Assembly (NCBI RefSeq): GCF_003171675.1
Contig: NZ_QFZQ01000002.1
Coordinates: 372,001-436,000, forward strand
Source: Reichenbachiella versicolor
GTDB taxonomy: Bacteria; Bacteroidota; Bacteroidia; Cytophagales; Cyclobacteriaceae
DNA length: 64,000 bases
Reading direction: 5' to 3'
Each line of letters starts with the position of its first letter. Position 1 is the stretch's first letter. Of the stretch, positions 12,002 to 48,507 are shown piece after piece. The translations under genes and the position numbers were made by a program. The notes under the pieces were generated by a model that worked only from the letters and a program-made list of their open reading frames with translations, searched no databases and had not been told where the DNA came from.

Positions 12002-16722
<4,721 letters not shown>

Positions 16723-20608: not shown

Positions 20609-22858
20609 ATGAATAGACTAAGACTAATTATGCTATTAGCCGTGATCACGACGTGTTCACAGAGTAATCTGATAGCAGGTGGCGCTGGTTACAACAAACA
20701 TAGAATTGCAATCAGTGCTGATGGTAACAATCAACCTGATGTGGGGTACCCTAATGCTACTACAGAAGACTGGGCTGCGGCTCCTCTATCTCTCGCGCTT
20801 ATCGCTAAAGAGAAGTTACAAGATAAACTTGTTCATTTCTCCTATAACAACTTCATAGATGCACCAGCACATACTTCAGAGACTAATTATATGAAGGTCA
20901 ATTGTGAGGAAGGGGCTACGAGATTCCAATTTGATACAGATGTATTCTTTGACGTATCCGCTGAACAAGCAGATGCTGTGCTAAGCCTGAAAGAAGAGAT
21001 GAAAAAATCAACTTCAGCAGATCCATTATATTTCATCTTAATGGGACCTCCAGAATTGTTTTACCTAGCTGTGCAAGCAGTGATTGATGACGGATCTGTC
21101 GAAGCTCTATCCCATGTCAAGGTCATTTCTCACCTTGCTTCCGTAGAATCTTTAAAAAGAAGAACTACTCATCATACACTTGCTGAGGCAATTACGCTTA
21201 GTGGTGATAGAATAACACATACACAAATCGCTGATCAAAGACAGTGCAATATTGGATACAAAGGCTTTTGTCAAAAAGATAAGATCTTCCAATGGTCCTT
21301 TCTAAGAGATCATAGAGATGAAAACCTGAAATGGCTTTATAAAAGAATACAGGAACAAGGTGGAGACCCAGTTAATGTCAATGTTTCTGATGCTGGTATG
21401 GTTTTTTACTTACTAAAAGGAAATGAAACAGGGAGTCCAAATGCTGTAAAAAACTATATAGACTATGGAATCTTATTAGAAGGTGATGAAATTATTGAAT
21501 CAATCGATATCACAGAAAAAGATGTAACTATTTTCCCAAAAAGAAGATATCAGCTTAACTATACAACGACACCTGTAGATCCCTGGGATGGCTTTTATTC
21601 ATGGACTACTAGTAACAGTAGCATAGCATATATTTCTCCAACAGGACGAGTTATTGGGGTATCACCTGGAAAGGCAACCATTACCCTTACTGGTGGTATC
21701 AATGATGCAAAAACCACAGTAGACGTAATCGTACTAGCCGAAGAAGCTTGTGAGAGTTGCTCCGAATCATGTGAATTAATAGAAAAAGATGGACTGCTTG
21801 TATTTGAAGCAGAACGTTTCAACCTTAAAGGCAAATGGGAAGTGGTCGAAGGAGATAACTATGCTTCTGGGGGTAAATATCTGACTTACACAGGACCAAA
21901 TAGCTACAAAACGCAAAACCTTGCTAATGAGATTTCATATACATTCAAAATAAATAACCCCGGTAAATATCAAGTCAAGTGGTTCATGAGACAACCTGAT
22001 GAACTACATGGAGAAGAGGTAGAAGGTGATAAATCTAACGATGTATGGATACTAATAGATGGTGGATATGGGTATGCCAATGATGACAAGCTTGCTGGAT
22101 ACGCTAAAATAGTCGGTAGAAGTAAAAAAGTATTCGCTTTTAATGGATCTCTAGATATAGATCACAAGTCATTTGCCTTTTATGGAAACTTTCCTGCCGC
22201 AGGAGAATATACTATGAAACTATGTGGCCGATCAGAATATGTACAGATAGACAGATTTGTGCTATACAAGACCGACGTTGGCAATGTGGGTTACAAAGCC
22301 GCGGACGTTACAGAAACGACTACATGTATGGATGATGTATTCAGTATAGAAACAGATTATCAAGCAGTCACTTCAATGTCAATTGAAGTAACTGACATTA
22401 ACCTAAAGGTTGGAGAAACTAAAGAGATCTCAGCTACCTTCGAGCCTTCTAATGCTACTATACAAAGCATTACCCTAGGATCTTCAGACCCTAAAGTAGC
22501 CAGCGTAGAAGGTAATACAATTAAAGGTATATCGAATGGAACGGCAACTATCACAGTGAAATCCGACGATGGAGATTTCACAGAATCGATAAAGGTAACT
22601 GTAACAGAAGATGGTTTAGGTATCCAAGGCATACTACAGGGCGTATTTCCAAACCCTGCCAAGTCTTGTATTAATATATCAGTACCTAACCCTGGAAGCC
22701 TTAGCATTTATTCTATGGATGGTAGACTTGTCAAAACCAAAGACCTTACTGAAGGAGTCAACTCGGTTTTAGTTGATCATCTATATTCAGGAAAGTACAT
22801 TACTCATTTTAAAAGTGAACAAGGTTCTAGTAGAGCTTTGATTACTATTGATAGATAA
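20609..22858 (+). CDS. Secreted family member A: nucleoside-hydrolase-like domain, Ig-like, CBM-like, T9SS
   Basis: A 749-residue exported protein. After the signal peptide, residues about 25-290 form the domain shared with the proteins at 23261-26125 and 47128-48507. It opens HRIAISADGNNQPD, then LVHFSYNNFIDAPAHTS, DPLYFILMGPPELFY, HHTLAEAITLSGDRI, and ends SDAGMVFYLLKGNETGSP. The Asp-rich opening and the GP-containing strand recall DUF1593/nucleoside hydrolases; that relation is my inference. Next come a BIG2-type Ig-like domain (~300-375), a CBM6-like domain (~395-560, FEAERFNLKGKWEVVEG), a second Ig-like domain and a T9SS tail. In the segment equivalent to DDWGGTP of the other two it reads EDWAAAP, so it may be catalytically altered. 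Function unknown. Confidence 0.75.
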   Translation: MNRLRLIMLLAVITTCSQSNLIAGGAGYNKHRIAISADGNNQPDVGYPNATTEDWAAAPLSLALIAKEKLQDKLVHFSYNNFIDAPAHTSETNYMKVNCEEGATRFQFDTDVFFDVSAEQADAVLSLKEEMKKSTSADPLYFILMGPPELFYLAVQAVIDDGSVEALSHVKVISHLASVESLKRRTTHHTLAEAITLSGDRITHTQIADQRQCNIGYKGFCQKDKIFQWSFLRDHRDENLKWLYKRIQEQGGDPVNVNVSDAGMVFYLLKGNETGSPNAVKNYIDYGILLEGDEIIESIDITEKDVTIFPKRRYQLNYTTTPVDPWDGFYSWTTSNSSIAYISPTGRVIGVSPGKATITLTGGINDAKTTVDVIVLAEEACESCSESCELIEKDGLLVFEAERFNLKGKWEVVEGDNYASGGKYLTYTGPNSYKTQNLANEISYTFKINNPGKYQVKWFMRQPDELHGEEVEGDKSNDVWILIDGGYGYANDDKLAGYAKIVGRSKKVFAFNGSLDIDHKSFAFYGNFPAAGEYTMKLCGRSEYVQIDRFVLYKTDVGNVGYKAADVTETTTCMDDVFSIETDYQAVTSMSIEVTDINLKVGETKEISATFEPSNATIQSITLGSSDPKVASVEGNTIKGISNGTATITVKSDDGDFTESIKVTVTEDGLGIQGILQGVFPNPAKSCINISVPNPGSLSIYSMDGRLVKTKDLTEGVNSVLVDHLYSGKYITHFKSEQGSSRALITIDR

Positions 22859-22880
22859 CACAACAACTATCATTTTATAT

Positions 22881-22928
22881 TGACCAATTATGGTGTTAGT
22901 CGGAAGTTACACCATATTGGTCATTTTT
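22881..22928 (+). terminator. Strong terminator after family member A
   Basis: TGACCAATTATGGTGT and ACACCATATTGGTCA form a 15-bp near-perfect stem around a 12-base loop, followed by a T-run, 22 bases after the stop codon. Confidence 0.88.
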
Positions 22929-23168
22929 GGTTTTCACATATTGGAAGATCTCCTTTAGTCAATTACACAGTGTTTGTTGGTTTATGAATTTAAGTTTGAT
23001 TTTTGATCTAGAGTCAGCTTAGTTTTTTGTATTAAAACAGAAGTATTTGTTAACTGAGACGGTACTCATGAAAGAAATAAGAACCTTATTAAACCAACTA
23101 CTATAACAATTCGACATCAATACTAGCTCCATTTCTATCTAACCAGTTTAAAAAGAATACTCCTAGAC

Positions 23169-23199
23169 AAAAAAGACGCACCCTTGATGATGCGCCTTT
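23169..23199 (-). terminator. Terminator after family member B
   Basis: On the minus strand AAAGGCGCA and TGCGTCTTT form a 9-bp stem (one mismatch) around 10 bases, followed by TTTTTT, about 60 bases after the stop of the gene at 23261. The rest of the gap 22929-23260 shows nothing else. Confidence 0.8.
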
Positions 23200-23260
23200 A
23201 ACGTGCAATATATATTCAAAATCAACAGGCTGACTAAACCTGAAGATGTTGAATCGAATA

Positions 23261-26125
23261 TTATTCTATCACTAGTCTACTAGTAGTAGTCCCTATTTCA
23301 GAGCTAATCTGAATCACATAAATACCAGACGCTATTCCAGACACATCAAATATTGGATTGTCAACATCTGCTTTTAAACTAATAGGCAGTCCTCCTGTTA
23401 TATTTCTTAGTGTGATCAATGCCCCCTTCGGACATTCTACTTTGAATACGCCTTTTGAAGGATTGGGGAAGAATGAAACAGACTTCATATTACTTATACT
23501 TTCATTTAAACCTTCTATAGTTCTTGCAGAACTACCACTAGTCACGATAGTAAGTACTGGTCTCAGAGCTGCATTTGCATTTTCTGATGAAGCAAACGAA
23601 ATATCGTTGCCTGAGCCATGTCTGACAATAAGAGATAAATAACCGCTATTAGCTATTTGAGATACATCCAAATCAAAAGTATATGACTGCCCTACTGAAT
23701 ACGTAGCATTCTTAGAAGCCAAAACACCTGCTGATGCTGGAGCATTCGATGTAGATAAGTTAGTTTCAGTCCAACTGTTACTACTTCCTTTCAATATTTC
23801 AACTACTCCAGATCCTGCATCAGATCCAACTCCTAAGGTCAATTTGGCAGTAGCTATCTGTCCAGTAACAGAACTCAAGTTATATTTCAAATAACTTACT
23901 CTATTACCATCTTCTACTCTGAGATCTATAGTGTTATAACGAGTTGATCCTTGGAGGTAAACATCTTGAATAGCATTCAAAGTAAATGTCTCTGAAACAG
24001 CGGTAGACCCTACATCAAAAGTGGTGTCTTTGTTTCGAACTAAGTTGGTCTGCCAATTACCTCCAACTGGTCTAAGCGCCAAGTCTACTATGTAGCCGCT
24101 TGCAGCAGGAAGAGGGTTTGCCAATGAAACAGTAACTGCCACTTGCCCAGTGCCAGACGGAACTGTTATTTGTTTATTAGCTATGTAAGCATCTTGCGGA
24201 GAACGAATACCTACATTAAGATCGCGACTTCCATCTGCAGTGTAAGCGATCGTCACTGCTATATCAGTTTGACTATCCGATACTGAAGTAGGTGCCTGCA
24301 CAACTGAAACAGCTTCCTGTACAGCGTCTGCCTTTACATCAAAAGTTCCTCTAACTGTTTTGATATTTGACTGCCAACTTGTGCCTACTGGACGAATTGA
24401 TACATCCGCTATGTAGTTATTGGCTATAGATAAGGCTTGCGCTAAAGGAACTGTAATAGTTACCTGACCACTGCCATTAGGTACTGTTACTTTCTTGCTG
24501 GTAATAAATGTCTCACCTGGAGTCTTAAGAGCTACATTAATATCTCTACTTCCATCGGCTGTATAACTTACCGTCACTGGTACTTCAAGATCAGAATTGG
24601 ATATGGATGAGGGGATATTTGCCAAGCTTATATCTTCATCTATTTGGACACAATTTCTTGTCTCAGCAGTGACACTAGCCTCCGCTTCCATTTCCTCTCT
24701 AGTTCTACCCAAAGCAATAACAATTCTATCAAGCTGAAACTCTTCAGATCTACCAGATAGTCTCAATGTATATTCCCCTGGTGTTGGAAAGTTCACCCTC
24801 AACCAAGCGCTACCAATACTATGTATGTCCAAGGCTCCGTTGAAACCGAATACTTGTTTGCTACGACCTACAAACTTGTGAAAACCTGTGATCACATTTC
24901 CTTTAGCTGTCTGAATAGCATCAGGAAAGTCCAGCCAAGCATCATTGGATTTATCACCTTCAGCGTGATCTGGTTGACGCATATTCCAGAACACATTGTA
25001 ATTACCCGTTGTAGTAATTTGAAACTTTACTTCTGTATTATGTGCTGGGTTTGGAGAATTGTAGTGATTAGCTCCCATGAATTGGATATACTGACCTCCA
25101 GCAGCTACAGGATCTGAAGCTATCTCCCATCCACCATTAGTAGGGAAGCTCTCTCCTTCTATGATGAGTAATCCATTGCTTTCCGCAAGTCCACAATCAC
25201 CACTATCTTCTACTTCAATACCATTCCCAATAAATGTCTCAAACTTAGAAGGACTACCATTCTCATCCCCTACTAGCAACCAATACAACATGCCTGCATC
25301 AGAGATATCAGCTGAGTTTTTAGCATTAGCTCTCATTCTTTGATAAAGCCATGCTACATTAGGGTCAGCATGATCTCTCATCCAGTGCCAAACTGTCCAA
25401 TCCTTATCTGATTGCCAAAGTACATTGGGATCGTGACTTCCATTCTGATCCTTGATTTTGGTATACTTGATTCTATTACCGCTCAACTCCTGAACCTCTG
25501 CCCATGTATGGTGCTTTTGGCTTGCTGGTACTGGAGTAAGATCAAAATTAGGGTCACCTCTTCTCAGATGATTTTCATTGTATCCACTATGAGAAACCAA
25601 ATACACATGCGAAAGTGCTGAAATCTTACCGTTAGCAATAGTTTTCGCTACAGCTCGATACAAGAACTCTGCGGGCCCCATATGAATAAAGTAAAGACGG
25701 TTAGACGAAGTTGACTTACCTAACTCTGTGGCAAGGTGATTAATCGCCGCTGTATTATTAGCACTGACATCGAAAAAACGACTTGCATCAAAACCCCACC
25801 TGTTAATACCTCCATCAACACCAATCTTCATCTCATTTACGGCAGTAGTATGCGGTGGAGAATCGATAAAATTGTTGTAGGAATAATGAACAAGTTTGTC
25901 TTGTAACTTGAGCTTTGCGATCATAGCCAATGCAGCTGGGGTACCTCCCCAATCATCTGGATCAGCGGTCTTCCACCTATGTAGCACATCAGGTTGGTTA
26001 TTGCCGTCTGCACTTACGGCAATTCGATGGTTGTTGTATCCCCATGACTGGGCACTTACCACACTCGACATCAATAGTGCCGAGGCTATAAGATACAACC
26101 TCAGGATTATAAAGTTCCTAATCAT
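23261..26125 (-). CDS. Secreted family member B: nucleoside-hydrolase-like domain, CBM-like, two repeats, DNRLRE-like, T9SS
   Basis: A 954-residue exported protein. After the signal peptide (ends SSVVSAQ) the shared N-terminal domain spans about 28-305: HRIAVSADGNNQPD, DPDDWGGTPAALAMIAK, LYFIHMGPAEFLYRAV, SHSGYNENHLRRGDPNFD, SDAGMLYWLLVGDENGSP. A CBM6-like domain follows (~315-475, with MRQPDHAEGDKSND), then two ~95-residue repeats that both contain VSYTADGSRD/IAYTADGSRD and IRPVGTSWQ/LRPVGGNWQ. A DNRLRE-like (CBM96-type) domain comes next, with NAIQDVYLQGSTRYNTIDLR, then a T9SS tail ending IGTTTSRLVIE. The architecture is that of a surface enzyme with several glycan-binding modules. The catalytic role is not known. 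Confidence 0.75.
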   Translation of the reverse strand: MIRNFIILRLYLIASALLMSSVVSAQSWGYNNHRIAVSADGNNQPDVLHRWKTADPDDWGGTPAALAMIAKLKLQDKLVHYSYNNFIDSPPHTTAVNEMKIGVDGGINRWGFDASRFFDVSANNTAAINHLATELGKSTSSNRLYFIHMGPAEFLYRAVAKTIANGKISALSHVYLVSHSGYNENHLRRGDPNFDLTPVPASQKHHTWAEVQELSGNRIKYTKIKDQNGSHDPNVLWQSDKDWTVWHWMRDHADPNVAWLYQRMRANAKNSADISDAGMLYWLLVGDENGSPSKFETFIGNGIEVEDSGDCGLAESNGLLIIEGESFPTNGGWEIASDPVAAGGQYIQFMGANHYNSPNPAHNTEVKFQITTTGNYNVFWNMRQPDHAEGDKSNDAWLDFPDAIQTAKGNVITGFHKFVGRSKQVFGFNGALDIHSIGSAWLRVNFPTPGEYTLRLSGRSEEFQLDRIVIALGRTREEMEAEASVTAETRNCVQIDEDISLANIPSSISNSDLEVPVTVSYTADGSRDINVALKTPGETFITSKKVTVPNGSGQVTITVPLAQALSIANNYIADVSIRPVGTSWQSNIKTVRGTFDVKADAVQEAVSVVQAPTSVSDSQTDIAVTIAYTADGSRDLNVGIRSPQDAYIANKQITVPSGTGQVAVTVSLANPLPAASGYIVDLALRPVGGNWQTNLVRNKDTTFDVGSTAVSETFTLNAIQDVYLQGSTRYNTIDLRVEDGNRVSYLKYNLSSVTGQIATAKLTLGVGSDAGSGVVEILKGSSNSWTETNLSTSNAPASAGVLASKNATYSVGQSYTFDLDVSQIANSGYLSLIVRHGSGNDISFASSENANAALRPVLTIVTSGSSARTIEGLNESISNMKSVSFFPNPSKGVFKVECPKGALITLRNITGGLPISLKADVDNPIFDVSGIASGIYVIQISSEIGTTTSRLVIE

Positions 26126-26230
26126 AATTGTATTAATTAAAATAGTTAATAAACCTAGACACTCGTCTAGGCAGTTTAAAAGGTATATGTAACTTACTGA
26201 TAGCAGGCACCTTAACTGCTAAACATCAGC

Positions 26231-26278
26231 TTATCAAAAACTTAACCATTACACAAAACGGATTTACAATTACTTAGC
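26231..26278 (-). promoter_or_regulatory. Paired GTTAAGT-type boxes upstream of family member B
   Basis: On the minus strand GCTAAGTAATTGTAA starts at 26278 and GTTAAGTTTTTGATAAG starts at 26246, again 32 bp apart, about 105 bases before the start codon. They match the pairs before members A and C. The rest of the 26126-26439 gap has no gene. Confidence 0.65.
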
Positions 26279-36810: not shown

Positions 36811-39387
36811 CTATTTAGATTGAGCTACTATCTTATTGATTACGAAAGCGGGCTTATCTCCGGGAGGTATAATCTTGATAGACTTATGCTTTACCTCTCC
36901 TGCTAGTGTTTTTACTCTTAAACGAACTGGCTTTCCATATTCTGGTGGAATAGGAATTTTGATCGCTTGGCTTAGTTGCTTATTGAGAATCGTGTAATTA
37001 GCAATCTCCGCTCCTGCCATAGAGGTCTCTATGATAGCTTCCTTGGTGGCAAACTCGAAGTTTAATTCGGCATCCCAAGTGTTGACATAAAACCCTGGAT
37101 CCACGAAGGTGATCTCATACTCTATCCATGCTAAACCATCATCTTGCTTTTTAGAAGTAGCTGATATTCCAGAATTGTCTGCATACAAGTAATCCCATCC
37201 AAGTTTTCTCTTAGGATCGTTGGCAGCAAAGTATCCTCCTTTCTTACCTCCTACTTTGACTATAGGTAATATTCCTCCTTCTACTTTTACCGTTTTAGTC
37301 TCGAAGATATTTGCACTAGAATTACCTACCATGATTTCGAAAGCGCCCTCTTCTACTTTATATGTATTGGCTATGGTATCATAATATGAGAATGCTTCAT
37401 ATGGCAGTGTGAATTGAACTGGCACAGATTTGCCGGCTGGAACATTTAATCTCTTGAATCCTTTCAATGCTTTTTTCGGTGTCTTTTGAGAAGATTTCAC
37501 GTCTCGTAGGTAGACTTGAACTACTTCATCACCATCAACCGAACCGATATTACTGACCTTGGCTGAGACTACTAAGTTACCTTGCGCATCTACTTTAGTC
37601 TTATCTATTTCTACACCTTCAATTTTAAAATCAGTGTAGCTCAATCCATATCCAAATGGATAGAGTGGCTTACCCTCGAAATACATGTAAGTACGTCCAG
37701 TCTGAACATTATAATCATGGAAATCTGGAAGATCCGAATCAGACTTGAACCAAGTAGCATTCAACTTACCGCCTGGATTTACCTCCCCAAACAATACTTT
37801 AGCTAAGGCATTACCTTGTTCTTGACCATTTGGCCATGCACAGATGATTCCAGGTATATTCTCTTGCTCCCAAGGAATCGCAGTAGGACCGCTAGGAACT
37901 AAAACTAAAATCACGTTCTTATTTACTTTCTGAACAGCTTTGATCAGCTTATGCTGATTGCCCGGAAGAGTAAGTGAGCTTCTATCGGTATTCTCTGTTG
38001 AAGTAGTTTCGTCATTACCGACTACTAAGATCACTTGGTCTGCTTTCTTAGCTATCGAAACTGCTTCTTTGATTTTCGCTTCATCATCTTCGTGTGCCAA
38101 TACTTCACAGCCTTGTGCAAAACTTATCTCTGCATTGGTTGCTTGTTTCAGTCCTGCCAATGGAGACACTTTACTTTTTGGATGTCCTGAATAAATTCCC
38201 ATCCAGCATCGATCTGCGAATGGCCCAATGACTGCCATTTTCTTAATATTCTTCTTCAATGGAAGAACGTCATCATTCTTCAACAGCACTATAGACTGCT
38301 CTGCCGCTCTCAAAGCCAACTGCTTGTGAGCATCACATTCTAATACGCTTCTCGGTATCTCAGAGTAAGGATTCAAAGAAGGGTCATCAAAGTCACCCGT
38401 CATGAACCTCAACCTTAGCAACCTGCGAACAGAAACGTCCAATTCTTCTTCTGTTAATAAACCTTGTTCTATAGCTGGCTTCAAAGCAACTACCATTGGT
38501 GCTTGTCTCACTTTGTTTCTGAAACACTCCTGATCTACACCTGCTTTGATCGCCATAGCGGCAGCCTCAGGTTGAGTTTTAGCATATTTCATTCTTTTTT
38601 CTAGACCTTGTACCGCAGCCCAATCTGCGATAACATAGCCTTTGAACCCCCACTCATCACGAAGTACATCGTTGACTAACCAATCGTGGGCCGAACATGG
38701 AATACCATTCAAGCCATTTAGACCAGTCATGATTCCTGTTGCTTCTTCATCTACGATGCATGTTTTATAGCCTGGAAAGTAATATTCATACAAGTCTTTT
38801 TTATTGACATAAGAATGATTCCATTCACGTCTCTTCTCTACATTATTAGCTACATAATGCTTAACAGTCGTTACAGTTTTCATGTACTTAGGATCATTAC
38901 CCTGCATACCTCTCACATACATTCTTGCCATCTCTGACATCAAGTGTGGGTCTTCACTGTAGCACTCTCCATTTCGCCCCCATCTAGGATCACGAGCCAT
39001 ATTGACTGTAGGAGAAAACATCATTACTTCCTTTTTACCAGAATTTTTTAGAGCTCTGGCTTCATTAGAGATTGCAGTAGCGACATCAAACATCAAATCT
39101 GGATTCCATGTACTTCCCATGGCGATATTTTGGGGAAACTGAGTACAGTTCCATGCGATGATTCCATGAAGTGCCTCTCCATACCATTCGAAATATGGTA
39201 CTCCCAATCTTTCTATTTCAGGAATACGAGACCCGCAGTAGCTGATCTTTTCTTCTAAAGTCATCTTGGATAATAAATCCTCTACACGGTCTTCTACCTT
39301 AGCATTGGGATTCTTCCATGTCTGAGCTGTTACCACATTGCCGAGCAATAGTAGGACAGCTAATATTTGATATAATTTATTTTTCAT
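36811..39387 (-). CDS. GH3 beta-glycosidase, secreted
   Basis: An 858-residue enzyme: signal peptide (ending GNVVTAQ), GH3 TIM barrel, alpha/beta sandwich and fibronectin-like C-terminal domains (SYTDFKIEGVEIDKTKV). The nucleophile is D255 in YVIADWAAV; many GH3 enzymes have Ser before this Asp, here it is Ala. VKHYVANNVEKRREW holds the conserved Lys-His. The last ~140 residues form an extra carbohydrate-binding-like domain (GISATSKKQDDGLAWIEYEI). The start MKNKLYQI at 39387 is preferred over the TTG five codons upstream. It follows GH30 with almost no gap. Beta-glucosidase or beta-xylosidase activity on oligosaccharides is likely. Confidence 0.92.
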   Translation of the reverse strand: MKNKLYQILAVLLLLGNVVTAQTWKNPNAKVEDRVEDLLSKMTLEEKISYCGSRIPEIERLGVPYFEWYGEALHGIIAWNCTQFPQNIAMGSTWNPDLMFDVATAISNEARALKNSGKKEVMMFSPTVNMARDPRWGRNGECYSEDPHLMSEMARMYVRGMQGNDPKYMKTVTTVKHYVANNVEKRREWNHSYVNKKDLYEYYFPGYKTCIVDEEATGIMTGLNGLNGIPCSAHDWLVNDVLRDEWGFKGYVIADWAAVQGLEKRMKYAKTQPEAAAMAIKAGVDQECFRNKVRQAPMVVALKPAIEQGLLTEEELDVSVRRLLRLRFMTGDFDDPSLNPYSEIPRSVLECDAHKQLALRAAEQSIVLLKNDDVLPLKKNIKKMAVIGPFADRCWMGIYSGHPKSKVSPLAGLKQATNAEISFAQGCEVLAHEDDEAKIKEAVSIAKKADQVILVVGNDETTSTENTDRSSLTLPGNQHKLIKAVQKVNKNVILVLVPSGPTAIPWEQENIPGIICAWPNGQEQGNALAKVLFGEVNPGGKLNATWFKSDSDLPDFHDYNVQTGRTYMYFEGKPLYPFGYGLSYTDFKIEGVEIDKTKVDAQGNLVVSAKVSNIGSVDGDEVVQVYLRDVKSSQKTPKKALKGFKRLNVPAGKSVPVQFTLPYEAFSYYDTIANTYKVEEGAFEIMVGNSSANIFETKTVKVEGGILPIVKVGGKKGGYFAANDPKRKLGWDYLYADNSGISATSKKQDDGLAWIEYEITFVDPGFYVNTWDAELNFEFATKEAIIETSMAGAEIANYTILNKQLSQAIKIPIPPEYGKPVRLRVKTLAGEVKHKSIKIIPPGDKPAFVINKIVAQSK

Positions 39388-39402
39388 ACTTAGTCGATTC
39401 AA

Positions 39403-40785
39403 TTATTTAATCACAATAGCACCAAAGGTTTTTGCTGGCAACTTCACTTTTACATCCTTGTCGGCCATGACAAACTGAAAAGTCTGTTCCTTCTCATCAT
39501 GATTGTGTACTAATATCTTAACCTCTCCATTTGGTGATTTCACAGTAATGATTGGATATAGATTTCCTCTGTTCACAGAAGCTACTCTTACGTCTCCCGG
39601 TTTAATGAACCTACTGATGATATACATCGCATTGTAATCGGGATTGTACGTGACAGTACCGTTTGATCGATCGATATTGATAAGAGAGTTTTGTGTCCAA
39701 TCCCAACCGCTCTTGGTTGTTTCATTGAGAATCATATTCCAATATGTAAAAGTCGTACTTCCACTATTAATATAGCCTGCAACCTCCTCAAGTCTATGCT
39801 CTGCTTGCTCTACGCTATTCTTTCCGTTATAGCAATGTCCTTCTGTGTGAAACAACTTTAAACCTGGGATGGCTGATCTCGCATCGTTGATAATCTTTGG
39901 CTCGGTATATTGCAACCCTACTCCATCTACTCCACTGAAATCCTTGCATTGTATATAATCCATCAAGTCCATCTGATTGGCAGCACGGAATGTACCTGCG
40001 TAAATTCCCGTTTTTAGATTATTGGCTTTGAATGCTGGTGCCAAGTATTCATTAGCGAATGCTACCATTTCTTTTGCAGGAAACTGACAGCTTGGATATT
40101 TAGTATCGGCATCGTTTTCGTTTTGGATGCAAATTCTATCTACACGAACGCCTTCTTTAGCATAAGCCTGTACATATTTCACAAAGTACTTAGCATAGGC
40201 TTTATAAATTTCAGGCGTAGTTCTCAATCGGTTACCTTCAGGCTGAAGGCCTTCCATCTTGCCACTTACTTTCATCCATCCTGGAGGGCTCCAAGGAGAT
40301 CCAAATAAAGTCAAATCAGGATTTACTTTAAAAGCAGCTTGTAAATAAGGCAAAACATACTTTTTGTCTCTATCAATTGAAAAATGCTTCATTTTGTAGT
40401 CTTCCGCTTTTTCAGAGTAACTATAGGCATCTATTCCAAAATCACTCGCTCCTATAGCGGTTCTACAAAAAGTAAATCCAGCTTCATCACTAGCAAACAG
40501 ATTCGTCATCAGTTCATCCTTCTTCTCAGGACTCAAAGCCGCAAGTGCTTCCCCTCCTATCTCATTAAATGCTCCTCCGATACCCTCCATCGTCTGAAAC
40601 TCTACTTCAGGATTGATATAAACTCTATTTCTCCAACCCACTTTACCTGGAGTACTTTGTTTGACCTCAAAAAGTGGATTTGCCTTACCTTCATTAAGCT
40701 TGACAGCATATACGCCTACTTTTTGGGCTTGAACCGTGGCTACGACTCCTAGCCAGATTAAGCATGTAATTAGTATTCTCATCAT
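39403..40785 (-). CDS. GH30 glycosidase, secreted
   Basis: A 460-residue enzyme with a signal peptide (ending TVQAQ), a TIM barrel and a side beta-domain. Acid/base E223 lies in CIQNENDAD and nucleophile E315 in LFHTEGHCYNG. TMEGIGGAFNEIGGEAL and FGSPWSPPGWMK are GH30 hallmarks. GH30 members act on beta-1,6-glucans, glucosylceramides, xylans or fucosides; the subfamily is not certain by eye. It lies between a GH2 gene and a GH3 gene on the same strand, consistent with joint breakdown of a beta-linked glycan. Confidence 0.92.
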   Translation of the reverse strand: MMRILITCLIWLGVVATVQAQKVGVYAVKLNEGKANPLFEVKQSTPGKVGWRNRVYINPEVEFQTMEGIGGAFNEIGGEALAALSPEKKDELMTNLFASDEAGFTFCRTAIGASDFGIDAYSYSEKAEDYKMKHFSIDRDKKYVLPYLQAAFKVNPDLTLFGSPWSPPGWMKVSGKMEGLQPEGNRLRTTPEIYKAYAKYFVKYVQAYAKEGVRVDRICIQNENDADTKYPSCQFPAKEMVAFANEYLAPAFKANNLKTGIYAGTFRAANQMDLMDYIQCKDFSGVDGVGLQYTEPKIINDARSAIPGLKLFHTEGHCYNGKNSVEQAEHRLEEVAGYINSGSTTFTYWNMILNETTKSGWDWTQNSLINIDRSNGTVTYNPDYNAMYIISRFIKPGDVRVASVNRGNLYPIITVKSPNGEVKILVHNHDEKEQTFQFVMADKDVKVKLPAKTFGAIVIK

Positions 40786-40886
40786 TTTATTTCTTTTACT
40801 ATCTAGTTTCTTTTATCTTAAATGGATCTGAGCGTTTATCAATTCCAATTACCTTATTCTCTCTAAGGAGAGTTAGTTTTTCTCTG

Positions 40887-43769
40887 TTACTTTAATTTCC
40901 TAAATTCTAATCCATTTAACCAAGTCTCAGCATTGTCTTTGTCTGTCTGAAAAGTCAATTCTACTGGACTGTTCCCATCACTCTCAATAAAATTGGTGAC
41001 AGAAACTGGCTTACGTTCTCCTATGTCACTGGAACTCTGGATACCTACTGGTTCTTCGTCTGAAACATATTCAAAGTCTCCTTTGGCATCATCAAGTGTC
41101 ACTCTCATATTGTATGGATATAGTTTTCCTTTTCTCTTTTCGAAAGAATGGTGATAGGTTTTGAGTTTATATCTTCCTTTGGGCAAATCCTTGATTGTTA
41201 GCTTTAGAATCCCTCCTTTGACGAATATTCCATCACTAGCAACATATCCCAAGTCCCCTACCATAGTCCATGTCCCTGGACGCCAATTGAGAGCCGAGTC
41301 TCCTGATACAGTAAAAGTGCTTTTGTCTAAGTCAAAGCTGAATGATTCTTCATCTCCACCACCTATACATGTCCAGCCAAACTGTAACAATTGACCTTTG
41401 TTTTGCAAATCGATCTTATGAAATGTATAATCATATATAGGTACTCCATTTGCAACGGTCATATCCGATTCAAACGGTATACTGTTAAGTAACAAAGCTC
41501 TACTCTTAAGTTTGCCTGCTGAAGCTTTAATTTTAATCTCACCAGCTTCTGAGGCTCCTTTGAGGTAGACAGTTGCAACTCCATGATATGTCTGCATCTT
41601 TTGGATATATGATTTGTCAGAATATAGAATCTCTCCAGCACCTTGCACTGAGAAACTCACTCTCTCATCTGCATCAGTGACAACTTCACCATTTCGATCT
41701 ACTACATAGGCTCTCAACATCTTAAGATCAGAACCTCCAGCTACTAATGGTAAATCTGAATTGTCAATAGCTAATTTCAGTGCATACGGAGCCCCTACTT
41801 TTATACGAGAATGTTCTGCTCTTACCTTTCCATTGTACAGGGCTTTAGCAGTAAGCTTTTCTTCTTTCCAGTCAAAATTGAAGGTAAATGAAGGATGTTC
41901 ATTCTGGTTTCTCAAATTGTCATTATCTGGGTTTTGAGTGGTAACTAACTTACCGTCGGCATAAAGAGCTACTTCATTGGCATTGCTATAGACATGAATT
42001 TTTCTATTCTTATAAACAGACTCATCCGCTATATGTACAAATGGCTCATCTGCAAACTCTGACTTGTACCAATAATAGGAAGGTCGGGGAATTCTGTAAG
42101 CAGTTTGCAGACCGTACTCTGTAAACATATCATGCTTGTTTTCATTTTCTCGAAGACGGTTGTAATCAGCTCCTACCCATAGCAATGCACCTATGTTATT
42201 GTTTCTTTTTTTGTATCTAGAGATATGAAATTGCATTCCTAATCCATTGTTGGAATAACCATGCTCCATCACCAAACAAAAATCACTTTCAGGCCATTGT
42301 GTCCTTCTGTAATCCATTGTGGCATAGATGTCAGTTACTCCAGCATTTTGAGTACCACACCATGGGCTAGAAGCACTAGCTGTCAGTCTATATGGATCTT
42401 CCTCTTTGGCTGCATTATTGAGTTGGGGTACTGGGCCTCGGTGGTTTATTCCTGCACCCCATATTACAATTGATGGGTGGTTTCTGTGATTGCGAATCAT
42501 TACTCTAGCAGACTGCTCTAGTTTATTCATCCATTCACCTTGTTCCCATAGAACCCACGTAGATGGTTCTTCATATAGTAATATTCCAAGCTCATCACAT
42601 GCTTCTATGAAGGAATTGTCCTGAGGATAATGAGATAGTCTGACGGCATTCATTCCTGCTTTTTTGTATCGAAGTGCCGCTTCGTAGTGCATAGAATTTG
42701 GAACTGCATCTCCTATGTGTGGATAGTTTTGGTGACGATTAACCCCAACCATAAAAAATGGTTCTCCATTTAGCATAAAGCCTTTGCCGTCTACTAGAGC
42801 AATCGACCTAAAGCCAAATTTATTTTCAATAAAATCTACAGGCTCATTATCTAGATAAATGACTGATACTGCTCTGTATAAATATGGTGAATCAGGTGAC
42901 CAAAGTCTATAGTTATCCTCTATCTCAGTAGTCTGTCTAAAGCTATGACTTTGACCTTTCGGGATTTCGATACTTGACTTCATTTTCTGAAGTACATATC
43001 CATCAGCATCTACTATCATAGTTTCTATTCTACATTCAGCAGCTTCATCATACTCATTGACTACGGTAGTTTTTACAGATACCGTTCCGTTGTTTTTCTT
43101 GACCGTAGGAGTAGTAATATGGACACCTGCATCCATGCTCTCCCAGTTAAAATTGACATGGAGTTTATTGGTCTTTACTAAGTAAACATCTCGATAGATT
43201 CCTCCCCATCTTACATAATCAGATTGATGAGGGTCGGGTGCGATAGTCGGATCAAAACTGTGGTCAGCTAAAACGACAATTACATTTTTCTTACCTGACT
43301 CGACAAAATCTGTAATATCAAAGTGATGAGGTATATAGCCATTCACTGCATATCGCCCTACATGTTGGCCATTGACCCATAGTTCAGTAGCACTGTGAAC
43401 TCCTTCAAATTCTAAAAATGCTTTCTCATTAGACTCTAGCTCGATAATCATTTCTTTTCGATACCAACTCTTGTCACGAATGAAATCCTTTTGAGACCAG
43501 TGGTTAGTAGCACTGTCGAGCCATATCGATACAGGGTCAGGATTATGAGGTAAGCTCACTTCCTGCCAACCGCTATCATCAAAGTTGACAGCTGTAGGTT
43601 GTCCTTCATTGTCTTTAGCAAATTTCCAATTGAGGTTTATATTCTCTTTTACTCGATTAGTTCGGGGGTAACCTGTAAGAGAAGATGCCCTTGCAAACGG
43701 GCTTAAGGCGCATGTAATCAATACTATTACAAGCAATAAACTCTTGCGATAAATCATTGTCTTATCCAT
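40887..43769 (-). CDS. GH2-family protein lacking the usual acid/base glutamate
   Basis: A 960-residue secreted GH2 protein: signal peptide, sugar-binding domain (LNWKFAKDNEG, ELWVNGQHVGRY), Ig-like domain, TIM barrel, further Ig-like domains and a C-terminal beta-sandwich ending WLNGLEFRKLK. The nucleophile position is kept (E502 in LVMEHGYSNNG). The acid/base site that normally reads Gly-Asn-Glu is GINHRG here, placing Asn442 at the Glu position. The enzyme may use another acid, act on an acidic or activated substrate, or have changed function. It is first in the GH2-GH30-GH3 minus-strand unit. Confidence 0.88.
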   Translation of the reverse strand: MDKTMIYRKSLLLVIVLITCALSPFARASSLTGYPRTNRVKENINLNWKFAKDNEGQPTAVNFDDSGWQEVSLPHNPDPVSIWLDSATNHWSQKDFIRDKSWYRKEMIIELESNEKAFLEFEGVHSATELWVNGQHVGRYAVNGYIPHHFDITDFVESGKKNVIVVLADHSFDPTIAPDPHQSDYVRWGGIYRDVYLVKTNKLHVNFNWESMDAGVHITTPTVKKNNGTVSVKTTVVNEYDEAAECRIETMIVDADGYVLQKMKSSIEIPKGQSHSFRQTTEIEDNYRLWSPDSPYLYRAVSVIYLDNEPVDFIENKFGFRSIALVDGKGFMLNGEPFFMVGVNRHQNYPHIGDAVPNSMHYEAALRYKKAGMNAVRLSHYPQDNSFIEACDELGILLYEEPSTWVLWEQGEWMNKLEQSARVMIRNHRNHPSIVIWGAGINHRGPVPQLNNAAKEEDPYRLTASASSPWCGTQNAGVTDIYATMDYRRTQWPESDFCLVMEHGYSNNGLGMQFHISRYKKRNNNIGALLWVGADYNRLRENENKHDMFTEYGLQTAYRIPRPSYYWYKSEFADEPFVHIADESVYKNRKIHVYSNANEVALYADGKLVTTQNPDNDNLRNQNEHPSFTFNFDWKEEKLTAKALYNGKVRAEHSRIKVGAPYALKLAIDNSDLPLVAGGSDLKMLRAYVVDRNGEVVTDADERVSFSVQGAGEILYSDKSYIQKMQTYHGVATVYLKGASEAGEIKIKASAGKLKSRALLLNSIPFESDMTVANGVPIYDYTFHKIDLQNKGQLLQFGWTCIGGGDEESFSFDLDKSTFTVSGDSALNWRPGTWTMVGDLGYVASDGIFVKGGILKLTIKDLPKGRYKLKTYHHSFEKRKGKLYPYNMRVTLDDAKGDFEYVSDEEPVGIQSSSDIGERKPVSVTNFIESDGNSPVELTFQTDKDNAETWLNGLEFRKLK

Positions 43770-43830
43770 TCATTTGATCTATCTCAAATATAATCACCTA
43801 GCTTAACGCCTTTGCTATTCAATAGCTGCA

Positions 43831-43874
43831 TAACCGTCGTGATACCGTAGCTGACACGGTGACTTTAACGGTTA
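43831..43874 (-). promoter_or_regulatory. Nested inverted repeats upstream of the GH2-GH30-GH3 unit
   Basis: TAACCGT (43831-43837) pairs with ACGGTTA (43868-43874), and inside them ACCGT pairs with ACGGT. The whole lies about 60-105 bases before the GH2 start, in the 369-bp gap shared with the divergent winged-helix regulator gene. It is a plausible operator. A second small repeat, CCTAA-TTAGG then a T-rich stretch (44014-44040), precedes the regulator gene. Confidence 0.45.
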
Positions 43875-44138
43875 ATATTTTTAGCTAAAAGTGGTCTATT
43901 TATCAATAAAGCAGCTTTTCTAATCAAAATTCTTATACTTACCAGATAGCTTGTAACTAAGCCACGAATGATTTAATTGACTCCTATTTTATCACCTATA
44001 TGAAGCTCCTCGACCTAACCTTAGATTAGGGGTTTTATTTCTACTCAATCCAAGGATCAAGGAATTAAATCCAAAGGGTAATCACCTTGCGATTAAATAC
44101 TCTTGTTTCATGTCAATTAGGAAATATATCTTTGAACT

Positions 44139-45302
44139 ATGAGAAGAGAGTTTCAAAAATCAGAAATTGAAGAAACGCTAGACAAGGTCTGCAATGACAA
44201 CTTGTTTACTAACTCCTCTACTCTTCAAAAACTGCTAAGGTATTTAGTCGAAAAAAAACTCCTGAACGAAGACCTTAAAGAACTCACTATCGGTCTAGAC
44301 CTTTTTGATTCCAACTACAGTGTTGACAAACACGACGGTATTGTCAGGACTTATATTTATAAGCTTCGCCAAAAGTTGGTAAAATACTACGCTCAACCAG
44401 AAGTAAATGACCCTATAATTTTTGAAATCAAAAAAGGTCAGTACAATCTATCCTTCCAGTCTCCAAACGAACTGATAAAGAGTGAATCAGATAAGAGTAT
44501 TAAAATACCGTTACAAAAATTGTGGATAGGCCTAGGCATTGCATTGATAATCGGTACTGTTATTCTAGCTAAGTTCAACCTTGAGCCAGAGACCTATTTA
44601 TGGAAACCTTTTTTATCTCCTGATGCTTCAAACCTAGTTGTTATATCCGATCAATATGTAGTATCAGAGACCAATCAATATGATGAAGAACACGCCGTTC
44701 TATATCCTGAAATCAACAATGATGACCAATTTCTTAAATATCAAAACGAAAACCCTGAGCGAAAACTTCGCCGAACGGACTATTCGGTAATGTCCAAAAT
44801 GGCACCATTTTCTATCAAGTCGATTACTGAATGGCTAATACCAAATGGCGGTAGTTTTGATATGAAACTGGAAAGTCAATTAGTATTTGACGACATCAGA
44901 AAACATAACATCGTATTCGTCGGTCAGTTCAAAACAATGAATTTATCGAAAGCTATATTCCTTAAGGACAGTAAAGTTTTCTCTACTTATATAGATGGCT
45001 TCAAATACTCTATTGGAGACGAAACCAAGGTTTATAATACTAAGCATGGAACTCAAAGAGTAGAATATGCCATGGTTTCATACACATCAATAAGCCCAAA
45101 CAACAAAGTGTTCTACTTTGTATCAAATAATGATATAGGCGTAATGGCTACAGTTCGCAACTTTACGAGTCCTGATTGGCTAAAGGACTTTGCATCTAAA
45201 ATCCCGCAAGAGGCTAAACATTTCAATGCACTATTTCAAGTAAGCGGAATACAACGAACAGATATGAGTTGTGAACTGGTAGAACTAGAAGTAATAGAAT
45301 AG
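44139..45302 (+). CDS. Winged-helix-like N-domain membrane regulator
   Basis: A 387-residue protein. Residues 1-90 (LLRYLVEKKLLNEDLKELTI, then LFDSNYSVDKHDGIVRTYIY and KLRQKLVKYY) match the DNA-binding-like N-terminal domain often found in front of sensory domains in Acidobacteria and Bacteroidota proteins. One membrane helix follows (LWIGLGIALIIGTVILAKF, about 129-147). The C-terminal 230 residues, probably periplasmic, have no domain I recognise. It is likely a CadC-like one-component regulator. It is divergent from the GH2-GH30-GH3 unit and ends 4 bases from the convergent TPR-HTH gene, so it is the best candidate regulator of that unit. Confidence 0.7.
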   Translation: MRREFQKSEIEETLDKVCNDNLFTNSSTLQKLLRYLVEKKLLNEDLKELTIGLDLFDSNYSVDKHDGIVRTYIYKLRQKLVKYYAQPEVNDPIIFEIKKGQYNLSFQSPNELIKSESDKSIKIPLQKLWIGLGIALIIGTVILAKFNLEPETYLWKPFLSPDASNLVVISDQYVVSETNQYDEEHAVLYPEINNDDQFLKYQNENPERKLRRTDYSVMSKMAPFSIKSITEWLIPNGGSFDMKLESQLVFDDIRKHNIVFVGQFKTMNLSKAIFLKDSKVFSTYIDGFKYSIGDETKVYNTKHGTQRVEYAMVSYTSISPNNKVFYFVSNNDIGVMATVRNFTSPDWLKDFASKIPQEAKHFNALFQVSGIQRTDMSCELVELEVIE

Positions 45303-45306
45303 CTAT

Positions 45307-46881: not shown

Positions 46882-47011
46882 ACTCTTGCTTTAGTCTTCT
46901 CATTTCATATCCTCTTCATATCGGCAGAGGATATTGTTAAGTGATAAATTAAGTAAAAGTTCTATTTAACAACGATCGAATAAACATTCAATCTAATATC
47001 CCCCCTCTATT

Positions 47012-47059
47012 GTTAAGTTATTGTAATACATCAACGGTATGCTGATAAGTATTTGAAAG
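47012..47059 (+). promoter_or_regulatory. Paired GTTAAGT-type boxes upstream of family member C
   Basis: GTTAAGTTATTGTAA begins at 47012 and GATAAGTATTTGAAAG at 47044, 32 bp apart as before members A and B. A further GTTAAGT lies at 46936, nearer the divergent regulator gene. A C6 tract directly precedes box 1, as also seen before the GH16 gene. Confidence 0.65.
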
Positions 47060-47127
47060 GAGATTTTGAGTCAATACTTTCCGTCTTGGAAATAACTTTG
47101 TTTTCGAGAAAAATTTTATACAAATAC

Positions 47128-48507
47128 ATGAATAAAGAACAAATGAAGCTAGGGATAAATTGTCTTTTACTAATCGTAGTAGCTTTAATACCTGACTTAG
47201 CCTCAGCTCAAGGCTGGGGCTATTCTAACAATAGAATAGCTATCAGTGCTGATGGCAATAATCAACCTGATCATATGCACCGTTGGTCAAAGGCCGATCC
47301 TGACGACTGGGGAGGTACTCCAGTAGCACTTGCCATGATCGCTAAGCTGCAAGCTCAGGACAAACTTGTTCACTTTTCATACAACAACTTCATTGATGCT
47401 CCGGCTCACACTTCAGCTACCAACCATATGAAAATAGGTGTCGATGGAGCGATTGAAAGATGGAATTTCGACAAGAATATATTCTTTGATGTTCCAGAGG
47501 ATAATGAAGCAGCTATTAATGATTTAGTGGAGGAAATAGAAAAGTCAACAGCTACTGACCCTCTATACTTTATACATATGGGACCAGCCGAGTTTCTGTA
47601 TAGAGCGGTGAAACAAGTGATCGAGGATAATAAAAGTGAAACCTTGTCTCATATTTATATTATTTCTCACAGCGGCTACAATGAAAAGCACCTAAGAAGA
47701 GGCGACCCTAAATTTGATAAAAAGCCTGTATCAGCTAGCGATAAACATCACACCATTGCAGAAACTATGGAGCTAAGCGGGCATAGACTTAATTACAGGA
47801 AGATCATTGATCAAAATGCTCATTGGGATCCAAACAAACTATTTGGATCAGACGATGACTTTACAGTCTGGTACTGGATGAGGGATCACAAAGACCCTAA
47901 CATCAAATGGCTATATGATAGAATGCTTGTCAATGAAAAAGGAAAAGCTGACTGCTCTGATGCTGGTATGGTTTACTATCTATTGACTGGTGATGATAAT
48001 GGTAGTCCTTCTAAGCTGGAAAAGTTCTTTGGTGAAGGCATACCAACTAATAATCTCACTGGTTCTGTTGAAAGCCAAACATTAAATGCCTTGAGAGATT
48101 TTAACATCCCGAGTATAGATGGTTTTGTACCTGCCTATAAAGATAAAGGTAGAAGAGCGCTAGCGGTCAATGCAGGCATGTACAAAGAGAAGTTTGCCGC
48201 TGCTACGGCTATTTTTGATGGCAATAGTGGCTTATATAATGTGACAATCACTACAGTAAAAGAAACTGATGGGGAATCGACTTACAGGCTTAGAGTATCT
48301 GGGGAGCTAGTAGGTAAATTCCAAAATCCAGAGACTACTCAGGACATGTCAACACATACCTACACGTTTCAAAACATTGCTCTGAATAAGGATGATGTCA
48401 TACAGGTCGAGTTCAACTCTACATCCAATGGCAAAATACCTGAAGGGAATGCTTTTGCATTTGCAAGAGGTAGATGGAGACAGCTAGAAATAGTAAAAAC
48501 TAACTGA
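47128..48507 (+). CDS. Secreted family member C: nucleoside-hydrolase-like domain with a short C-terminal module
   Basis: A 459-residue exported protein, the shortest of the three paralogues. The ATG at 47128 gives a good signal peptide (ending DLASAQ); an in-frame TTG at 47053 lies across the regulatory boxes and is rejected. The shared domain covers about 28-300: NRIAISADGNNQPD, DPDDWGGTPVALAMIAK, LYFIHMGPAEFLYRAV, HSGYNEKHLRRGDPKFD, SDAGMVYYLLTGDDNGSP. It is closer to B than to A. The last ~150 residues form a beta-rich module (VSGELVGKFQNPETTQDMST, FAFARGRWRQLEIVK) not found in A or B. There is no T9SS tail, so it should stay in the periplasm or be released differently. Confidence 0.78.
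   Translation: MNKEQMKLGINCLLLIVVALIPDLASAQGWGYSNNRIAISADGNNQPDHMHRWSKADPDDWGGTPVALAMIAKLQAQDKLVHFSYNNFIDAPAHTSATNHMKIGVDGAIERWNFDKNIFFDVPEDNEAAINDLVEEIEKSTATDPLYFIHMGPAEFLYRAVKQVIEDNKSETLSHIYIISHSGYNEKHLRRGDPKFDKKPVSASDKHHTIAETMELSGHRLNYRKIIDQNAHWDPNKLFGSDDDFTVWYWMRDHKDPNIKWLYDRMLVNEKGKADCSDAGMVYYLLTGDDNGSPSKLEKFFGEGIPTNNLTGSVESQTLNALRDFNIPSIDGFVPAYKDKGRRALAVNAGMYKEKFAAATAIFDGNSGLYNVTITTVKETDGESTYRLRVSGELVGKFQNPETTQDMSTHTYTFQNIALNKDDVIQVEFNSTSNGKIPEGNAFAFARGRWRQLEIVKTN

What the first reader, a model, noticed from the sequence alone, without database searches (positions are those of the whole stretch)
20609..48507. Three-member secreted protein family with one shared unknown domain and three different tails
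The proteins at 20609-22858, 23261-26125 and 47128-48507 share a ~280-residue N-terminal domain. It opens with ISADGNNQPD and SYNNFID and closes with SDAG-M-Y-LL-G near GSP. Each then carries a different set of modules: Ig-like + CBM6-like + T9SS; CBM6-like + two repeats + DNRLRE-like + T9SS; or a short unique module without T9SS. One head with swapped binding tails is what one expects of an enzyme or receptor directed to several glycans. The head resembles DUF1593/nucleoside-hydrolase proteins in its Asp-rich opening and its IxMGP strand, and a real DUF1593 gene lies at 12002-13492. I know of no assigned function.
Basis: partly seen in the sequence, partly recalled or inferred. Interest (0 to 1): 0.78.

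Follow-up and report, generated by a model that had tools for sequence, protein, structure and literature searches.

The report
Unnamed seaweed-sugar enzyme-like protein family
Three secreted proteins in this bacterium share a domain that the protein-family libraries searched do not describe; it carries a strongly conserved active-site-like pattern resembling nucleoside-splitting enzymes and often sits among genes for digesting seaweed sugars, so it may be an uncatalogued class of sugar-cutting enzyme.

Summary
A ~280-residue head is shared by the proteins at 20609-22858, 23261-26125 and 47128-48507 (46-68% identity, E 1e-83 to 1e-147); the genome encodes four more. No Pfam or NCBIfam model reaches its cut-off on it, and no PDB sequence matches. 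The "short unique module" is not unique. Full nucleoside-hydrolase (NH) and Sde182 profiles align to the head better than 14 control profiles, but never above 48% probability; structure prediction failed and was then switched off, so the fold is not demonstrated. A sister family keeps 12 of 14 conserved sites (DxDD, H..N, DxN, DxSD). Heads lie in clusters for red-algal galactan (GH86, GH16, GH29), in a repeated GH2-GH30-GH3 operon, in ulvan/rhamnose clusters and once beside ribokinase and a nucleoside hydrolase; 9 of 16 loci found by pattern scan show no recognised carbohydrate-degradation neighbour. Most likely a secreted, metal-dependent NH-like glycosidase family for algal oligosaccharides; activity untested. 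New variant of a known kind.

The parts
20681..21478 (+). Head domain of the 20609-22858 protein (residues ~25-290), diverged: D30T, D32E, N158V, N203R, D248N in head numbering
21497..21715 (+). Big_2 Ig-like domain of the 20609 protein (residues 297-369); a second Big_2 stretch exists (position not printed; a sub-cut-off Big-like match lies at residues 622-666)
   Evidence: PF02368 E 3.8e-22, 2 stretches
21749..22333 (+).
   Evidence: 44.5% identity over 164 aa, E 7.5e-46; weak GH115_C match
22643..22831 (+). T9SS sorting domain of the 20609 protein (residues 679-741)
   Evidence: PF18962 E 2.1e-9, TIGR04183 E 2.4e-7
25190..26050 (-). Head domain of the 23261-26125 protein (residues 26-312), conserved residues present
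24686..25189 (-). Beta-sandwich-like module of the 23261 protein (residues ~313-480)
23981..24640 (-). Two similar repeats of the 23261 protein (residues ~496-605 and ~606-715)
   Evidence: 47% identity, E 1.5e-35
23543..23926 (-). CBM96 / DNRLRE domain of the 23261 protein (residues 734-861)
   Evidence: PF24517 E 9.1e-14, NF033679 E 2.5e-13
23267..23470 (-). T9SS sorting domain of the 23261 protein (residues 886-953)
   Evidence: PF18962 E 8.9e-8, TIGR04183 E 3.1e-7
47209..48057 (+). Head domain of the 47128-48507 protein (residues 28-310)
47251..47307 (+). Acidic motif of the head: DGN (47251-47259) and DPDD (47296-47307), proposed counterpart of the NH DxDxxxDD fingerprint
   Evidence: D15, N17, D33 in 40 of 40; D30, D32 in 39 of 40
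47668..47682 (+). H...N motif (HSGYN) of the head
   Evidence: H154 40 of 40, N158 39 of 40
47809..47817 (+). DQN motif of the head
   Evidence: D201 38 of 40, Q202 40 of 40, N203 39 of 40
47950..47961 (+). DxSD motif of the head; its last Asp is the candidate equivalent of the C-terminal metal Asp of NHs
   Evidence: D248 39 of 40, S250 and D251 40 of 40
48058..48504 (+). C-terminal module of the 47128 protein: a recurrent ~140-residue domain, not unique; no T9SS match
36811..43769 (-). GH3 (36811-39402), GH30 (39403-40785), GH2 (40887-43769): close homologues sit near the head in L031, L032, L037 (all three) and L035 (GH2, GH30)
44139..45302 (+). Putative regulator (no Pfam match; role by eye), homologues near the head in L031, L032, L033, L037 and L141
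45307..46881 (-). TPR protein, putative regulator, divergent to the 47128 head; homologues next to heads at window 26440-27981 (31% identity) and in L034, L035, L140
   Evidence: PF13424 E 6.9e-11
5736..7862 (+). GH86-type beta-porphyranase/agarase, 13 kb before the first head gene
   Evidence: PF18206 E 1.3e-26, PF18040 E 9.8e-25
12002..13492 (+). Sde182_NH-like (former DUF1593) protein, a second NH-like gene; its 70%-identical homologue follows a (split) head gene in L041
   Evidence: PF07632 E 5.4e-77

Best explanation
The head is an unmodelled, NH-like catalytic domain: a secreted, probably Ca2+-dependent hydrolase that uses the conserved DGN/DxDD, H...N, DxN and DxSD residues to bind a sugar ring through a metal ion and to activate water for cleavage of a glycosidic bond in oligosaccharides made from algal polysaccharides. 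Attached, exchangeable modules (beta-sandwich, Ig-like, CBM96, T9SS) hold it on different glycans or at the cell surface; the 47128 form, without T9SS, would work in the periplasm. The 20609 paralogue, with five site residues gone, would be a binding or altered-specificity protein. Shown: homology, conservation, module differences, genomic context. Inferred: fold, metal, catalysis, substrate, location.
For: Active-site-like conservation of polar residues: over 40 heads, down to about 25% identity, D15, N17, D33, H154, Q202, S250, D251 are 40 of 40 and D30, D32, N158, N203, D248 are 39 of 40. A sister family C (HHalign 97.0%, E 1e-10) has the same residue at 12 of 14 of the sites compared (in its row L085; each of the 12 is 15 of 15 within C), with DxxxDxDD at the NH spacing of the DD pair. 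The five 39-of-40 exceptions all fall on one protein, 20609, as if these residues formed one functional unit. Full NH and Sde182 profiles score above 14 of 14 controls (NH+Sde182 pooled: P 1.8e-4, probability 48%; best control with the same query P 0.087). Context: own-genome heads 8-66 kb from a porphyranase-type gene, with GH86, GH16 and GH29 genes near the C2 and C13 heads (Pfam); porphyranase-type gene beside a head on a Catenovulum plasmid; GH43/GH117-type gene, sulfatase, GH16 and head in L045; GH2-GH30-GH3-head in L031, L032, L037; Sde182-like after the head in L041; 10 of 12 chosen genome loci with GH, BNR_4, sulfatase, HTCS or SusC/D neighbours; fused to GH106 in L149 and to an esterase plus 3-keto-disaccharide hydrolase in L088. 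In 295 genomes of the family, 5 of 19 head-bearing and 12 of 276 other genomes have a porphyranase, Fisher p 0.0024 (not corrected for shared ancestry; three genomes with only weak, sister-family matches counted as without head).
Against: HHalign to NH or Sde182 stays below 50%; the NH subset nhA does not beat the controls in two of three query sets; family C alone does not stand out from controls. A head profile against the PDB: 0 hits at E up to 10. The residue before the last Asp is Ser, where active NHs mostly have His, Trp or Cys (PMC8910321, passages), so no NH-like leaving-group step is evident. 14 of 19 head-bearing genomes in the family sample have no porphyranase, and of 16 loci found by pattern scan only 7 show carbohydrate-active, Sde182 or HTCS neighbours. 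The best-studied carbohydrate-linked NH-like protein, Sde_0182, is inactive on nucleosides.
Confidence: 0.5

Rival explanations
1. The head is a non-catalytic, metal-dependent sugar-binding module (the hypothesis in print for the NH-like domain of Sde_0182): it captures a sugar and, with the other modules, concentrates substrate or enzymes.
For: Sde_0182 keeps Ca2+, is inactive on nucleosides and is described as a furanose-interacting module (PMC8910321, passages); heads are often fused to binding-type modules; no His/Trp/Cys before the last Asp.
Against: 10 of the 15 find_related loci with an unsplit head ORF encode the head alone (285-385 aa, starts taken mechanically), which suits an enzyme better than a targeting module; joint loss of five residues in one paralogue against strict retention in 39 others suggests catalysis, though a binding site could be lost in the same way.
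Confidence: 0.22
2. The head takes part in the 3-keto (oxidation-elimination) route of glycoside cleavage together with GFO/IDH/MocA oxidoreductases and 3-keto-disaccharide hydrolase (PF06439, DUF1080) proteins.
For: PF06439 genes lie near heads in L139, L140 and L150 and, annotated as DUF1080, on pAlt76; one is fused to a head in L088; GFO/IDH/MocA genes near the heads of L140, L142 and L150 and, annotated, in L136.
Against: In the 16 pattern-scan loci only one weak PF06439-type match turned up (L042, 25% identity, E 2.6e-10), and none among window frames of 150 or more codons; such genes are common in these bacteria (recall).
Confidence: 0.1
3. The head is a secreted nucleosidase or riboside hydrolase that scavenges ribose from nucleosides or ADP-ribose-like compounds.
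For: In G012 (L142) a head-containing gene is followed on the same strand, with gaps of 91, 28 and 2 bases, by ribokinase (TIGR02152 368 bits, cut-off 300), an RhaT/ureide-permease-like transporter and an IU_nuc_hydro protein (E 2.1e-21); NH-like motifs; the own genome has no PF01156 match.
Against: One locus only, with a long-branch head fused to further modules; other contexts point to polysaccharides; Ser in place of the leaving-group residue.
Confidence: 0.1

Closest known systems
Sde182_NH-like domain (PF07632, former DUF1593; Sde_0182, PDB 2yhg)
   Same: Secreted modular proteins in carbohydrate contexts; similar acidic opening (ADMGNEPDE against ADGNNQPD); profile alignment covering opening and central strand in the widest set; gene adjacency in L041
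   Different: No PF07632 match of any scanned head; profile probability 4-22% for the head sets; the head has DxDD, H...N, DQN and DxSD motifs of its own
Inosine-uridine preferring nucleoside hydrolases (PF01156)
   Same: Acidic N-terminal DD motif, central GP-like strand and C-terminal Asp in the expected order (weak alignment)
   Different: Asn in place of the second Asp of DxDxxxDD and other spacing in the head; Ser, not His/Trp/Cys, before the last Asp; secreted and modular; no PF01156 match
Sister family C (unmodelled; L083-L085, L090, L151-L161, middle part of Catenovulum WP_268076604.1)
   Same: HHalign 97.0%, E 1e-10; same residue at 12 of 14 conserved sites
   Different: FDxxxDxDD opening, DGN in place of DQN, DFSD ending; no Pfam match for the four scanned
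XopQ/HopQ1 NH-like proteins (from PMC8910321 passages only; not compared here)
   Same: Described as NH-like, keeping the Ca2+ site and lacking the residues that activate the base
   Different: Effectors of plant pathogens; no sequence comparison was made

Membership tests
Inosine-uridine nucleoside hydrolase family (PF01156) | Match to the family model | tested here: not met
   No PF01156 match for any head protein scanned
Inosine-uridine nucleoside hydrolase family (PF01156) | DxDxxxDD fingerprint (definition from PMC8910321) | tested here: inconclusive
   Head: D-G-N ... D-x-D-D, Asn in place of the second Asp and other spacing; sister C: D-x-x-x-D-x-D-D
Inosine-uridine nucleoside hydrolase family (PF01156) | C-terminal metal Asp preceded by His, Trp or Cys (with archaeal exceptions named in PMC8910321) | tested here: not met
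   D251 40 of 40, preceded by Ser250 40 of 40; the equivalence of D251 itself is inferred
Inosine-uridine nucleoside hydrolase family (PF01156) | Nucleosidase activity | not testable with these tools
   Needs an assay
NH-like fold (clan level) | NH alpha/beta fold with bound Ca2+ | not testable with these tools
   Structure job failed
NH-like fold (clan level) | Profile-profile similarity above background | tested here: inconclusive
   Full NH, Sde182 and pooled profiles beat 14 of 14 controls (P 1.8e-4 to 0.01); nhA subset and family C alone do not; probability at most 48%
Sde182_NH-like (PF07632, former DUF1593) | Match to PF07632 | tested here: not met
   No scanned head matched; P0004 at 12002-13492 does
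Known glycoside hydrolase or lyase family | Similarity of the head to a catalogued GH/PL family | tested here: inconclusive
   No GH/PL model in Pfam or NCBIfam matches the head region; the CAZy list itself was not searched
T9SS cargo proteins | Por_Secre_tail C-terminal domain | tested here: met
   P0001 and P0002 yes, P0003 no

The most novel reading that the evidence does not exclude
The head founds a new, uncatalogued family of metal-dependent glycosidases with an NH-like fold, whose clades have taken up different algal glycans: red-algal galactans and the GH2-GH30-GH3 substrate (clade A, with sugar-acid genes of the L-fucono-lactonase type beside it in L035), rhamnose-containing polysaccharides such as ulvan (clade B and kin, with GH106, BNR_4 and rhamnose-catabolism genes beside it), and ribosides in G012; with a natural site-lost copy at 20609 beside an intact one.
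Probability: 0.3. Interest if true: 0.8.

Novelty: new variant of a known kind. Interest (0 to 1): 0.6.

Why it matters
A recurrent secreted domain of polysaccharide gene clusters, found in Bacteroidota and on plasmids of Alteromonadales, has no model in the libraries searched, so annotation passes it over as hypothetical. If it is an enzyme, a missing step in the breakdown of agar, porphyran or ulvan becomes testable, and the NH fold would gain an O-glycosidase branch. The 20609/23261 pair offers a natural control for the site.

Tried and rejected
Rejected: chance similarity (shuffles); membership of PF01156 or PF07632 (no model match); the exodeoxyribonuclease hits (E 0.87 or worse) and NCBIfam NF010489 (E 0.018, 14.8 bits against a cut-off of 503), and sub-cut-off Pfam matches in the head region (DUF3798 in P0001, E 0.033; DUF6503 in L031, E 0.0093), as noise; 'unique' tail of 47128; a strict link of head and porphyranase (14 of 19 head genomes lack it). 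Led nowhere: head profile against the PDB (0 hits); papers on NH-like proteins in polysaccharide loci (0) and on Catenovulum TS8 (0); the other paper searches gave nothing on this family in their listings, and I read passages of three papers only (PMC8910321, PMC6431674, PMC5294722). The viral-contig scan gave one hit (L134), scanned with Pfam only (no match). Family C alone did not support the NH link. My first by-eye label GH117 for L062:388 and L045:6091 is recall: Pfam gives GH43 (PF04616). The probability printed at the end assumes independent sites and is not used.


Full report
What was checked. The three ORFs are as described. Cut into modules and compared all against all, their heads match at 68.0% (23261 and 47128, E 5.7e-147), 47.0% (20609 and 47128, E 2.2e-87) and 46.3% (20609 and 23261, E 1.1e-83); the best of 400 shuffled heads reaches E 0.76. 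The tails differ, except that 20609 and 23261 share a ~165-residue beta-sandwich-like module (44.5%) and weakly similar T9SS ends. The genome holds four more heads: C13:444641, C2:651526, C2:655684, C2:699677.

Family and distribution. No Pfam or NCBIfam model reaches its cut-off on the head in the proteins scanned; sub-cut-off matches are listed under Tried and rejected. phmmer with the 47128 protein finds nothing better than E 0.87 in the PDB and a head profile finds nothing. With a 19-sequence profile, matches occur in 6 of 395 Bacteroidota genomes sampled (own included) and in 22 of 295 of the same family (own included); in three of these 22 the only match is a weak one to a sister family, leaving 19 of 295. 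One protein scan of genome contigs gave 16 loci, in Lutibacter, Maribacter, Seonamhaeicola, Carboxylicivirga, Labilibaculum, Cellulophaga, Saprospiraceae and an unnamed Flavobacteriaceae; six plasmid records of Catenovulum, Persicobacter and Alteromonas also match, of which I opened four. In 10 of the 15 unsplit loci the protein is the head alone; signal peptides were judged by eye. In a tree of 40 heads the head of 47128 groups with eight others, some of which carry other modules or none (support 86/91, drawn open; several long branches), which agrees with module exchange.

Active-site-like residues. Over 40 heads D15, G16, N17, D33, L119, G125, H154, Q202, S250, D251 and G253 are invariant (numbering from window 47209) and D30, D32, N158, N203, D248 are kept in 39. 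In all five of these the exception is the 20609 protein (T, E, V, R, N), which also sits on a long branch (0.98). The simplest reading is that these residues work together and that 20609 has lost or changed that function. Two other heads have N for D201 (L081, L088). A sister family C, found through weak matches, aligns with the head profile at 97.0%, E 1e-10 and has the same residue at 12 of the 14 sites compared (row L085); C was found in 12 of 395 phylum genomes. In Catenovulum WP_268076604.1 one chain holds the 47128-type tail, a C domain and a clade B head.

Relation to nucleoside hydrolases. I built profiles of Sde182_NH-like (18 sequences) and NH (17) domains from relatives. By default the aligned stretch is the central one, LYFIHMGPAEF on the NH 'GPLTN' strand; the acidic opening is aligned as well in the widest set against Sde182, and against NH when the alignment is relaxed with -mact 0.1. 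Scores against 14 control profiles from neighbouring families: set 'wide' 27.4 (NH), 25.5 (Sde182), best control 23.7; set 'wideC' 31.7 and 26.1, best control 18.8; widest set 29.4, 32.4 and 37.8 for both pooled (P 1.8e-4, probability 48%), best control 20.8 (P 0.087). Against this: no comparison passes 50% probability; the NH subset nhA scores 22.5, 19.1 and 14.9, below the best control in two of three sets; and family C alone does not stand out. In most NHs a His, Trp or Cys precedes the last metal Asp (PMC8910321, passages); here it is Ser. So NH-like is my best estimate of the fold (about 0.8, inference), not membership of PF01156 or PF07632.

Genomic context. Window: GH86-type porphyranase at 5736, Sde182-like at 12002, GH2 at 13489, two convergent head genes at 20609 and 23261, a GH3-GH30-GH2 cluster at 36811-43769 and the third head at 47128. 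Of the 16 loci, three have close homologues of the window's GH2, GH30 and GH3 plus head (L031, L032, L037); L035 has GH2 and GH30; L034 a GH3 homologue and a SusD gene; L045 (Lutibacter agarilyticus) a GH43-type gene (GH117 by eye), sulfatase, GH16 and head; L041 an HTCS regulator, a split head and an Sde182-like gene: 7 of 16. L033 has only the putative regulator, four have a kelch-repeat gene (L039, L040, L042, L046), four nothing recognised (L036, L038, L043, L044): 9 of 16. This was judged by BLAST against 24 reference proteins, partly labelled by eye and later checked in Pfam. Of 12 further loci that I chose from the strong matches, 10 have GH, BNR_4, sulfatase, HTCS or SusC/SusD genes; L142 has a ribokinase/IU-NH operon; L148 only a weak partial HTCS match and a beta-helix protein (L146 and L147 overlap). 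Near the own-genome heads on C2 and C13 lie GH86 (PF18206, PF18040), GH29 (PF01120, two genes), GH16 (PF00722) and a GH43/GH117-type gene (PF04616). On a Catenovulum plasmid the neighbour of a clade A head is a porphyranase-type gene (PF18206 E 2e-24). In the family sample 5 of 19 head genomes and 12 of 276 others have PF18206 (Fisher p 0.0024, no correction for ancestry; with the three weak genomes 6 of 22 and p 0.0006). On the ulvan plasmid of Alteromonas 76-1 a clade B head lies between GH43 and sulfatase genes (the passages of PMC6431674 that I read give the plasmid's ulvan function and do not mention this protein). A clade B head in L144 adjoins rhamnose-catabolism genes (RhaD-type TIGR02632 946 bits, cut-off 568; an isomerase and a kinase below cut-off); L145 looks alike but was not scanned. 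L149 fuses a head to GH106. In L035 the genes after the head resemble L-fucono-lactonase (282 bits, cut-off 400) and an enolase-superfamily sugar-acid dehydratase (201 bits, cut-off 500).

Reading. A secreted, metal-dependent NH-like hydrolase for algal oligosaccharides explains the conservation, the sister family, the head-only forms, the module differences and many contexts; binding without catalysis, a part in 3-keto cleavage, and riboside hydrolysis are the rivals. There is no biochemical evidence here for any of them. Nothing on this family was found in print within the searches named (an open-licence library; listings read). The nearest printed idea is the carbohydrate-linked NH-like Sde_0182 (Hehemann et al. 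2011, seen only as a reference entry; summarised in PMC8910321). The call 'new variant of a known kind' depends on the NH-like fold being right.

Noticed in passing
window 20681-21478: The head of this paralogue alone, of 40 compared, lost five near-invariant residues, while its intact paralogue at 23261 is the next long ORF, tail to tail.
   Followed up: partly
L142:10070-15713: A head-containing 843-aa gene is followed by ribokinase, an RhaT/ureide-permease-like transporter and an IU nucleoside hydrolase on one strand with short gaps; its C-terminal part looks like a further glycosidase (GH140-like by recall; no Pfam match).
   Followed up: partly
L139, L140, L150, L135, L088: 3-keto-disaccharide hydrolase (PF06439/DUF1080) proteins near or fused to heads, with GFO/IDH/MocA genes in L140 and L150.
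   Followed up: partly
L083-L085, L090, L151-L161: Sister family C of ~280-aa proteins (FDxxxDxDD ... HSxWNE ... DGN ... DFSD), no Pfam match for the four scanned, in 12 of 395 phylum genomes.
   Followed up: partly
L041:9866-11961: The head gene of a Saprospiraceae MAG is split into two ORFs; assembly error or broken gene is unknown. Left as two pieces.
   Followed up: no
L134:4911-5726: A contig in the viral collection (IMGVR_UViG_3300031576_000222) encodes a head relative (28% identity); whether it is truly viral was not checked.
   Followed up: no
window 48058-48504: The ~140-residue tail module, without a Pfam match above cut-off, recurs in stand-alone proteins of about 181-191 aa (L009, L015, L016) and in multidomain proteins with CBM96, CBM9 or GH141: a candidate uncatalogued carbohydrate-binding module.
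   Followed up: partly
window 7889-9565 and 9831-11996: Two cluster genes without a confident Pfam assignment: a beta-helix-like protein (by eye) and a protein with a borderline GH67 N-terminal match (E 3.1e-5).
   Followed up: no
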